A stretch of 64,000 nt of DNA from NCBI GenBank assembly GCA_035048495.1, contig CM068545.1, forward strand, positions 37,586,225 to 37,650,224, written 5' to 3'. The position numbers were made by a program, and so were the translations under genes. The stretch is from Euptelea pleiosperma (lineage: Eukaryota > Streptophyta > Magnoliopsida > Ranunculales > Eupteleaceae). The notes beneath the pieces are model-generated. The model was not told where the DNA came from and did no database searches. It saw nothing but the letters and a program-made list of their open reading frames with translations. Shown here in pieces: positions 30,689-34,444 of this stretch (its first letter is position 1; each line of letters starts with the position of its first letter).

Positions 30689-32534
30689 GCAGTTCATAAA
30701 ATATAAACTCATTGGAATACATCATTAAAGCAAACATCTTTCATGCCCAATTGAATCCCACAAATGAGCTTAACACAAAGTTCACATACACATTTCTTTG
30801 AATCATAACAACATGAAGTCCACAAATGAGCTCCATCTAGATTAGGTCCACCGATGAAAGCTGATTCATCCAAAAGGAGAGATGTAGTTGACCCTAACAA
30901 GAGGAATTTCTAATTTTTGGTAATATGGTATGGTATAAGCATTATATAAAAAAAAAACAATTGTCTGTCCTCTTCTAACAAAAACCCAGTTTACCTATGT
31001 TAAGTAAAATGCTTAGTTTAGTCCTGTCACGCCCCGAATTTCGGCACCTGAACTCAACCCGAACGTCTGTGGATTAGCTCGTTTACCCGACATCCAAGGT
31101 GTGTTTAAAAAAATAAAAGTTTTTTTTTATTCTGAAATATCTTTTTAAATTATCACAATTCCTCATAAATCAAAACAAGAAACTTTTGTAAAGATGTTTT
31201 GTTAATTTAACCGTTTAATATATTTTTTGAATTAAATTTTCACAATTAAACGGTACGGTACCCAAAATAATAATTAAATTTATTTTCAATCAAAACTAAT
31301 GGTTAGGATCTTTATAATTACCTAAAATTTATATTAAACAACTTTTGTGAAAGTACTTAAACCAAAATATTTATTTGATAGTATTTTGAGATATATTTTT
31401 CACAATCCGGCAGAGAACGATTATTTTTTGTTCAAAATTAAATAATGTCAAAAAATTATTTCATTCAAATCTTTTGTTCTATAAATAAATATAAACAACT
31501 TTAATAAATGAACTTTTGTCAAAATATCATATTTTATAATTGTTTTAATTATTTTACAACTATCCGTAGTTCCTAAAAGTAATCGGCAAAACTCAAATAA
31601 TTAATTATTTTCTGAATGAATCACATGATTCGGGAGTCAATTCAAAACTAAATCTAACAAATGATATATGAATTTCATAGTACTCAAAATTTATGATTTT
31701 TATATCAAATAATATAGTATAGGTTTTATTTTAAAATTTGAAAAAAAAGTTGAAACAAAATTAAAAATTTTTAAAAATTCGTAACTGATGACCAGTCAGT
31801 AAAATGGGTGTACAAGATAGCTCCGATTAAATTAAGTGACCAATCATATATTTCTGGAAAGCTAACTCGAAGTCCCTCATGTTTTATGTTTGGCCAAAAG
31901 ATATATATCCATTGTATGTGGGCCAAAACTCAGTCAAAGTTGATTAATATGTGTTGTTTGTACAGGACAACAATTATAACGTTTACTTTGTCGAGTTCCA
32001 CAAAATAGAAAATACAATATTAAATTCAAAATAAAATTTATAAAATAATAAAATCAATTTTAAAATAAACCCGTTTAGCATCGTATTATTTCAATATCGG
32101 TAGAATATTTGACGAATATTCTCGTCTAGGACGTCAGGTAAATCAGAGTAACCAATATTTTTGCAAAAGTACAAAAACGTGAATTAAACTATTTCAATTA
32201 ATCTCAATATAAACAATTAGTTTAAAACTCTATATTACAATTAATTATCTTAAAATAAAATACTAGATTCTTATCTTCAAGTTTCTTCTATCATTCAGCT
32301 CCACTTCATCTAATGTGTTGTTCTCATCAGGATCAACAAAACTTGAAATGGTGGTTGTAGGAGTAAGGGCTGGCAATGGATCGGGTTCAAGTCAGATTGG
32401 TACTGATTTGGTACCGATCTGATAAGAAATCCAATTGATCCGGACCCGATCGGATAAAAAAAATCAGTTCCGAAACCAATCCGATATGATTAGATTGGAT
32501 CCAGGCCCGATCCGATATGATACACATTTACCTC

Positions 32535-32671
32535 AAAATATTGTCGGAGATTTCGGTTTCGATCCTCTTGGGCTTGGGGAGGATCCCAAAAGTTTAAAGT
32601 GGTATGTGCAGGCAGAGCTCGTGCACACTCATTTCGCAATGGCTAGAGTAGTCGAAATTCTTCTAACTGAT
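32535..32671 (+). pseudogene. Captured Lhca-like (light-harvesting complex I) exon fragment
   Basis: The plus strand reads GDFGFDPLGLGEDPKSLKWY, then VQAELVHTHFAMARVVEILLTD. This is the first conserved block of the chlorophyll a/b-binding family: the GDFGFDPLGL motif and the first transmembrane helix start with the Glu and His/Arg ligand region (family form E-x-x-H-x-R-W/F-A-M). The helix Arg after His is replaced (HTHFAM), a likely pseudogene change. Directly after LLTD stands gtgagc, a good splice donor, and reading-through gives a stop at 32678-32680. So genomic, not cDNA, sequence appears to have been captured. Closest by eye to Lhca-type proteins with LKWYVQAELVH; the exact paralogue needs a search. 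Confidence 0.85.
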
Positions 32672-33292
32672 GTGAGCTGATTAAAAAAAACTGAGTCATC
32701 TTAGGCACCATTTATGCAATAATCTTTTCATGCCAAACTGGTTTTTGTGTGTGGGTGTTTTATAGTACTCTATATCATACAAAGCTCTTCTTTTATCGGT
32801 GAAGATGTACAATAAAAAAAAGCAGAGAATGATAGTAGTAATTAGATTTGAACTTCCACTGTGTTACACGATGAACATAGTCTCCACAGGCTTTATCCTT
32901 ATCGCCTTTCACCAAAACTAGAGATAGAGGCTATAGAGCACATATTGTAATGGTTACTTGCTACTAGCACCGGCCTCCACTCCAACGATCCAAAGCAACA
33001 AAAGGATGAAAAAAAGTGAAGAAGAAGAAGAAGTGAAGATGAAACCAAACTAAGAGAAGAAGAACAAAAGAAGTTGAAAGGACAAAGCAGAAAAACAGAA
33101 GTCTAAAGGGCGAAAATAGGAAATGTTAACAATTAAAAAATAATTTAAATCATAATTAGTAATTACCAAACCTAGGGAAAGATTCATGTTTAAATTTATT
33201 GGAAATAATGCCCAATAGTAAATATTAGTTGTCAACTTTACCAATAAACAAAAATTACTTTAAATAAAAATCTATTTTATATATATTACATA

Positions 33293-33524
33293 CTTAGAAT
33301 ATATACTGGGTCTATATCGGATCGGAACAAGGTTGATCCGGTACCGATCCGATAAGAGATCGGATCGACAATCTGTGATCCAGTATCGATCTGATAACCA
33401 AACTTAGAATATATACCGGGTCTATATCAGATCGGAACAAGGTCAATCCGGTACCGATCCAAAGATCGGATCGACAATCTGTGATCCAGTATTGATTCGA
33501 TAACCAAAAATAAAGTTTTGGACC
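33293..33524 (+). repeat. 120-bp sub-terminal tandem duplication in hAT element
   Basis: Two units start cttagaatatatac at 33293 and 33413 and share gggtctatatcrgatcggaa, ccggtaccgatcc and gatcggatcgacaatctgtg. Sub-terminal repeats of this kind are transposase binding regions in hAT elements. Confidence 0.9.
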
Positions 33525-34444
33525 TAATTTTTTTGGATCGGATCTCGGGTTTGATCCGATCCATTGCCAGCCCTAGTAGGAGTGAGCCAAACGCTCACTA
33601 TATTTTTCACAAAAAAATATGATTCAAACAATACAAGGTATATAGACATGTTCGCATATATTAATTTGTCAAACAATAATGTCATGGTCATAATAAATAT
33701 ATGAACAATTAGTCAAAATAATACGCAACCTACACAGGGGGTCTCCTTCTTCACCTATATAGAGGGTCTTCTTGGGGTTTTCGAGTATTTCACCCTGGAG
33801 AACTCACTCCCAATTAAATAACTATTCACTGAAACAATAATATCCATACAGGGGATCTCTAATACAAAACAAATAGAATCCACACAGGGGATCTCTAATA
33901 TAAAACCAACTATCAATTATAATTTAACAATAAATACATGCTCATGAGTTAATGACTAGTATTGAAAGAATTATGAGGAGGATACCTACCTTAAGCTTTT
34001 GTTCATCCTCTGAAAGTATTCACCAAATCCAAGAATGATTAATGCAGGAGATTAGAGAAATGTGAGGTGGGAGTATTTTTTAACAAGTGAGGTGGCTAGG
34101 TTTTGGTGTGGGAGCCTCTTAAATAAATTATGTTAGAAGATTTAAGATTAGAGTTTTTGTTTAAATTTTTGGGAGGTCAATTCTTGGCCATTGGATATAA
34201 AGTTGGTAAAGTGTTGAGATCAATTAGGTTTTTGATTCATAATAGAGTTTAGGGTTTGAAAGATTCTCCCCATCTTTTATGGAAATAACTAACAACTTCT
34301 ATTTTACCTAAAATTAAAAGTGATTTTTGTAACTCTAAAATGGATAAATTTTACAACTAAAAGACTAATTCAAGTTAGATATAGGCCAGAAATGGGCCCA
34401 AAGCCTATATATATTAATTGGGCTTTAATTAAAGCTCCGAGTTA

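What the first reader, a model, noticed from the sequence alone, without database searches (positions are those of the whole stretch)
32365..33575. hAT element carrying a light-harvesting (Lhca-like) exon with its splice donor
A non-autonomous element with a perfect 8-bp TSD (gtaggagt) and 19/20-bp TIRs encloses an exon-like block encoding the GDFGFDPLGLGEDPKSLKWY motif of chlorophyll a/b-binding proteins, followed by the intact donor site gtgagc. Gene capture at the DNA level is well known for Pack-MULEs and Helitrons and less often described for hAT elements. The residue changes in the helix suggest the fragment is no longer under protein-level selection.
Basis: partly seen in the sequence, partly recalled or inferred. 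Interest (0 to 1): 0.85.

Follow-up and report, generated by a model that had tools for sequence, protein, structure and literature searches.

The report
Plant transposon carrying captured Lhca5 exon
A small plant cut-and-paste transposon of the hAT type carries one exon of the photosystem I antenna gene Lhca5 with the splice donor that follows it, and the captured piece looks decayed; it is a clean example of a kind of gene capture that is already described.

Summary
A 1,211-bp element (32365-33575) has a perfect 8-bp target-site duplication and terminal inverted repeats matching at 19 of 20 bases; a scan of the window found no second structure of this kind. Its ends are rich in GATCCG/ATCGGAT repeats, which the middle (32522-33289) lacks. 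The homologous exon is 32539-32671, and the GTGAGC donor sits at the native boundary: in 51 of 51 Lhca5-like genomic reading frames that passed my filter (of 120 listed) the exon also ends at Thr-Asp followed by Val. The next Lhca5 exon was not found, so the right side was copied from unspliced DNA (or unspliced RNA). The position of the native acceptor reads AA, not AG. Six of 44 residues occur in none of 159 Lhca5 rows; five of the six can be explained by a C>T or G>A change. The fragment is probably not under protein-level selection. hAT elements that carry exons and introns are in print (grapevine Hatvine-6; Pack-hAT in maize). This is a new member of a known kind. The plant, the donor gene, sister copies and small RNAs could not be examined; the genome search did not answer 14 requests.

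The parts
32357..32364 (.). left copy of the target-site duplication GTAGGAGT
   Evidence: sequence
32365..33575 (.). whole non-autonomous hAT-type element, 1,211 bp
   Evidence: TSD and TIRs
32365..32384 (+). left terminal inverted repeat (19 of 20 against the right one; outermost base A/T differs)
32365..32521 (.). left subterminal region rich in GATCCG/ATCGGAT repeats (3 ATCGGAT in 157 bp, both strands, against 0 in the 768-bp middle)
   Evidence: direct repeats
32522..33289 (+). middle part without the subterminal repeats: presumed captured or filler DNA; borders set by where the repeats stop, so approximate
32539..32671 (+). Lhca5 exon fragment, 133 bp: third base of one codon plus 44 codons (IVGDFGFDPLGLGEDPKSLKWYVQAELVHTHFAMARVVEILLTD)
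   Evidence: boundaries by comparison with genomic ORFs of other plants
32537..32538 (+). position of the native splice acceptor dinucleotide; reads AA here
   Evidence: (sequence) (native ORFs read Ser or Arg, i.e. AG plus one base, here)
32672..32677 (+). splice donor GTGAGC directly after the exon, at the native position
32678..33289 (+). rest of the middle part; start is probably Lhca5 intron by position, identity beyond that unknown; no protein match worth the name in six frames
33290..33575 (.). right subterminal region rich in GATCCG/ATCGGAT repeats, with a 106-bp tandem duplication at 33311-33514
33556..33575 (-). right terminal inverted repeat
33576..33583 (.). right copy of the target-site duplication GTAGGAGT

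Best explanation
It is a Pack-type (gene-capturing) non-autonomous hAT element in a flowering-plant nuclear genome. Shown: TIRs, TSD, repeat-rich ends, and inside them an Lhca5 exon running into its splice donor. Inferred: a hAT transposase supplied by another element acts on the TIRs and subterminal repeats; during an earlier excision and gap repair, or by re-mobilisation of two neighbouring insertions, a stretch of the genomic Lhca5 gene came to lie between the ends; the element then inserted here, making the 8-bp duplication. The copied exon has since changed without protein-level constraint, with a lean to C>T/G>A as expected of methylated, silenced DNA. It most likely has no function beyond being carried along.
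For: TSD/TIR unique in the window and not matched by 20 resampled windows. Subterminal motif density: ATCGGAT 3 in 157 bp and 6 in 286 bp at the ends, 0 in 768 bp between, 7 in the other 62,789 bp of the window. Lhca5 identity: the fragment matches 32-37 of 46 residues of 117 full-length Lhca5 rows (of 120 listed; 3 lacked the search motif), and the highest row is Magnolia sinica Lhca5 (P0093; name). In PDB the best single-domain matches are Lhca5 chains (7wfe_B5, 6l35_5), above Lhca2 and others. Donor at the native place: 51 of 51 filtered genomic ORFs. No other Lhca5 exon detected in the window by tblastn with five full-length Lhca5 proteins. Decay: I2, T31, H32, R37, V39, E40 are each seen in 0 of 159 Lhca5 rows; the normal residue is invariant at R32 and G40 (159 of 159) and at 158 of 159 at L2 and G37; three of the six (H32, R37, E40) have G>A as the only one-step origin from a residue seen in Lhca5, V39 and T31 can come by C>T or G>A, I2 cannot. 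Printed precedent.
Against: No transposase or sister copy was found, so hAT membership rests on TSD length, TIR form and end structure. The lean to C>T/G>A rests on six changes: with a transition rate four times that of transversions, 5 of 6 has chance 0.011 and 4 of 6 has 0.070. No in-frame stop or frameshift lies in the exon. Left edge unclear: the translation upstream of the exon (HLPQ, aligned to HLDG/YLDG of Lhca5) shares two residues with the end of the preceding exon, so the AA could be an acceptor that lost its G, or the copy could join there differently. Intron identity after the donor was not shown by any sequence match.
Confidence: 0.88

Rival explanations
1. The Lhca5 piece is a chance or host-derived pseudogene at the locus and the TIRs merely happen to flank it.
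For: One exon only; the plant's genome could not be searched.
Against: TIR plus TSD is unique in the window and not reproduced in 20 resampled windows; the exon is wholly inside it and nothing of Lhca5 was detected outside; the TSD copies are adjacent to the element ends, so the element came in as one block.
Confidence: 0.03
2. The fragment came from a reverse-transcribed Lhca5 transcript rather than from gene DNA.
For: Upstream of the exon the frame reads HLPQ where Lhca5 protein has HLDG or YLDG, two shared residues that could be the end of the preceding exon joined without an intron.
Against: On the right the reading frame passes into a GTGAGC donor at the native exon end and not into the next exon, so at least that intron was not spliced out. 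Two residues are weak.
Confidence: 0.04
3. The element belongs to another TIR superfamily (for example a short-TIR MULE or a P-like element) rather than hAT.
For: 8-bp TSDs are not exclusive to hAT (recalled); the TSD GTAGGAGT fits only one of the two fixed positions of the Ac-type nTnnnnAn target (recalled). No transposase tested.
Against: Short TIR beginning TAGGG, 8-bp TSD and subterminal short repeats are the usual hAT picture (recalled; all hAT elements annotated in PMC8903248 had 8-nt TSDs, passage). MULEs usually have longer TIRs and about 9-bp TSDs (recalled).
Confidence: 0.07
4. The captured exon is used: transcripts of the element yield small RNAs or chimeric mRNAs that affect the real Lhca5 gene.
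For: Sense exon with an intact donor; regulatory roles of captured fragments are discussed in print (passage of PMC2528002).
Against: Acceptor position is AA; no conserved reading frame; no expression data; the fragment differs from Lhca5 proteins at several residues, which lowers RNA matching.
Confidence: 0.05

Closest known systems
Hatvine-6 hAT elements of grapevine (PMC2528002; passages read)
   Same: hAT elements whose variable middle holds captured genic sequence including introns and exons.
   Different: Hatvine-6 members share a transposase coding sequence; this element is 1.2 kb with no transposase found. Different captured gene.
Pack-hAT elements of maize and rice, within Pack-TYPE transposons (PMC8903248; passages read)
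   Same: Non-autonomous hAT elements with 8-nt TSDs carrying coding DNA; one maize case supplies a new splice donor to a host gene.
   Different: There the elements were found by genome-wide search with sister copies; here one copy is known and no host gene is shown to use the donor.
Pack-MULEs (Mutator-like; recalled and named in the passages)
   Same: Works the same way in outline: exon and intron pieces between terminal inverted repeats.
   Different: Short TIRs and an 8-bp TSD here.

Membership tests
hAT superfamily, non-autonomous | 8-bp target-site duplication | tested here: met
   GTAGGAGT on both sides, 8 of 8
hAT superfamily, non-autonomous | short terminal inverted repeats | tested here: met
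   19 of 20 bases; that the TAGGGCTGGCAA start is a hAT-type end is recalled, and a text search for such strings gave no plant transposon paper among the 20 of 57 listed
hAT superfamily, non-autonomous | repeated subterminal motifs | tested here: met
   ATCGGAT 3 and 6 times in the ends, 0 in the middle; that hAT elements have such motifs is recalled
hAT superfamily, non-autonomous | relationship to an autonomous element with a hAT transposase | not tested
   needs the genome; the genome search did not answer 14 requests; the six-frame Pfam scan of 31001-36002 found no transposase
Pack-TYPE transposon | host coding DNA between the TIRs, no transposase | tested here: met
   Lhca5 exon inside; only PF00504 found in six frames
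Pack-TYPE transposon | a donor gene elsewhere in the same genome | not tested
Lhca5 | exon sequence closer to Lhca5 than to other Lhca/Lhcb proteins | tested here: met
   PDB ranking: Lhca5 chains first among single-domain matches; the top row by E-value, 9vfj_11 (LHCI-11), sums several weak stretches, each with E 0.024 or worse
Lhca5 | native exon boundary at the donor | tested here: met
   51 of 51 filtered ORFs
Lhca5 | native acceptor AG | tested here: not met
   AA at 32537-32538

The most novel reading that the evidence does not exclude
The element keeps a donor-linked Lhca5 exon that is transcribed and feeds small RNAs or chimeric transcripts acting on the plant's real Lhca5 gene, so that a hAT element tunes a photosystem I antenna gene in trans.
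Probability: 0.04. Interest if true: 0.6.

Novelty: new member of a known kind. Interest (0 to 1): 0.22.

Why it matters
It adds one well-delimited case of exon-plus-donor capture by a hAT-type element, with a named donor gene family, and shows how exon borders can be read from uncurated genomic reading frames of other plants. If sister copies or small RNAs exist, it would be a handle on how often hAT elements carry photosynthesis genes. As it stands it does not change what is known.

Tried and rejected
Second captured gene in 32678-33289: six frames with stops as X against PDB gave no hit in three frames and weak hits only (lowest E 0.1, ribosomal protein L6, over a lysine-rich stretch) in the other three; Pfam on six frames of 31001-36002 gave only PF00504. 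Not a proof of absence.

Gene at the insertion site: joining the flanks gave no convincing reading frame and Pfam none; I treat the site as intergenic.

Naming the plant: an integrase reading frame of a Ty3-type remnant (1411-1863) found 80 proteins, the best 54-56% identical, so no close species. The exon is nearest to Magnolia sinica (37 of 46), but rows from other plants reach 35-36, so this is no placement.

TIR in other collections: 0 in viral contigs; 3 in genome contigs, all bacterial MAG contigs. A random 19-mer is expected about twice in a collection of that size (257 billion bases, both strands; my arithmetic), so I take them as chance and did not study them.

Literature: a paper search for Lhca5 with transposon and pseudogene found 0 papers in the held library; Lhca5 with intron and exon found 31, of which 15 were listed and one was read in passages (PMC6993755: Lhca5 contains five introns). 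A text search for TIR strings gave nothing useful among the 20 listed.

Full report
What is there. The window comes from a flowering-plant nuclear genome by its content (Lhca5 exon, plant-type Ty3 and copia remnants); the species is unknown. At 32365-33575 lies a 1,211-bp element flanked by GTAGGAGT on both sides, with arms 32366-32384 / 33556-33574 complementary at 19 of 19 bases. The outermost bases differ (A against T), giving 19 of 20. Scanning the whole window for arms of 9 bp or more with perfect 8-10 bp flanking repeats returned only this element, in two registers; 20 resampled windows gave 4 hits, longest arm 11 bp. A third GTAGGAGT occurs at 36844-36851, without TIRs.

End structure. 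Counting both strands, ATCGGAT occurs 3 times in the left 157 bp, 6 times in the right 286 bp, never in the 768 bp between, and 7 times in the other 62,789 bp of the window; GATC[CT]G occurs 3, 9, 0 and 36 times. The right end contains a 106-bp tandem duplication, 33311-33514. These are the likely transposase-binding ends (inference).

Cargo. The frame starting at 32537 reads NIVGDFGFDPLGLGEDPKSLKWYVQAELVHTHFAMARVVEILLTDVS. It scores PF00504 at E 6.7e-11 and in PDB is led, among single-domain matches, by Lhca5 chains of Arabidopsis (7wfe_B5, E 6.4e-20) and 6l35_5 (E 8.7e-20), ahead of Lhca2 chains. The first row of that table, 9vfj_11, is a multi-domain protein whose single stretches are weak. 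A protein search with Arabidopsis Lhca5 gave 301 proteins, 120 listed, many named Lhca5. Of those, 117 hold the search motif and match the fragment at 32 to 37 of 46 residues; Magnolia sinica is highest.

Exon borders. A search with a short alignment of this region found 164 proteins, 120 listed, many of them short reading frames called on unspliced genomic contigs. Of the 120, 51 passed a filter for the Lhca5 motif (the filter does not test the residues before the first Leu or after Asp). In these, the residue before Leu is Ser in 32 and Arg in 19, as expected if the intron's AG is read with one exon base; the exon ends Thr-Asp in 51 of 51; the next residue is Val in 51 of 51 (Val-Ser in 35), as expected of a GT donor. 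Lhca5 is reported to hold five introns in the four species of PMC6993755 (passage). So the native exon corresponds to 32539-32671, 133 bp, and the GTGAGC at 32672 is the native donor. The native acceptor place reads AA. I do not number the exon, since I had no full gene model.

How it was taken up. To the right of the donor the next Lhca5 exon does not follow, and tblastn with five full-length Lhca5 proteins found no other part of Lhca5 in the window (best other hit E 0.30). Short exons could be missed. The gapped alignments run left to 32495, through the subterminal repeats, with an LDP-GP coincidence, and ungapped ones to 32525 (HL of HLPQ against HL of HLDG). I hold these two residues too weak to claim the preceding exon, but they leave the left edge open. 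The simplest account is a piece of the genomic gene, exon plus the start of the following intron; that the DNA after the donor is Lhca5 intron is inferred from position only. Which mechanism (gap repair with template switch, or re-mobilisation of neighbouring insertions as proposed in PMC8903248) cannot be told from one copy.

State of the fragment. In 159 Lhca5 rows (113 of 120 full-length, 46 of 120 short ORFs that passed a motif filter which does not involve these columns), six fragment residues are never seen: I2, T31, H32, R37, V39, E40. The normal residue is R32 and G40 in 159 of 159, L2 and G37 in 158 of 159. From residues seen in Lhca5, H32, R37 and E40 have only a G>A one-step origin; V39 and T31 may come by C>T or G>A but have other routes; I2 does not. 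Chance of 5 of 6 is 0.0003, 0.0024 or 0.011 for transition/transversion rate ratios 1, 2 and 4; of 4 of 6, 0.0045, 0.023 or 0.070. That fits methylation-driven decay without proving it. There is no stop in the exon frame; a stop follows three codons after the exon, inside the presumed intron.

Known or new. PMC2528002 reports hAT elements (Hatvine-6) whose variable part often matches genic introns and exons (passage). PMC8903248 reports Pack-hAT elements in maize and rice and one that gives a maize gene a new splice donor (passages). I found no report of Lhca5 in a transposon, by one search of a library that lacks most subscription journals. The finding is therefore real, well delimited and ordinary in kind.

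Limits. The 14 requests to the genome search did not complete, so the plant's own Lhca5 gene, sister copies and an autonomous partner were not examined; small RNA, methylation and expression data were not available.

Noticed in passing
window 24236-24532 (+): Reading frame with an RNase H1 N-terminal domain (PF01693, E 4.6e-18), perhaps an exon of a host gene about 8 kb left of the element.
   Followed up: no
window 1120-3483 (-): Broken Ty3-type polymerase region (reverse transcriptase/RNase H and integrase reading frames); the integrase piece is at most 56% identical to the listed proteins.
   Followed up: partly
window 61799-62889 (-): Broken copia-type gag with PF14223 (E 8.9e-13) and a sub-threshold zinc knuckle.
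   Followed up: no
window 33311-33514: 106-bp tandem duplication inside the element's right subterminal region, doubling the repeat motifs.
   Followed up: partly
window 37902-37937 and 63853-63992: Two tandem arrays share the unit start TCCAATCGATCGGACT, 26 kb apart; they may be pieces of one repeat family.
   Followed up: no
window 500-817: Tandem array of a 53-bp unit, 5.9 copies, next to the Ty3-type remnant.
   Followed up: no
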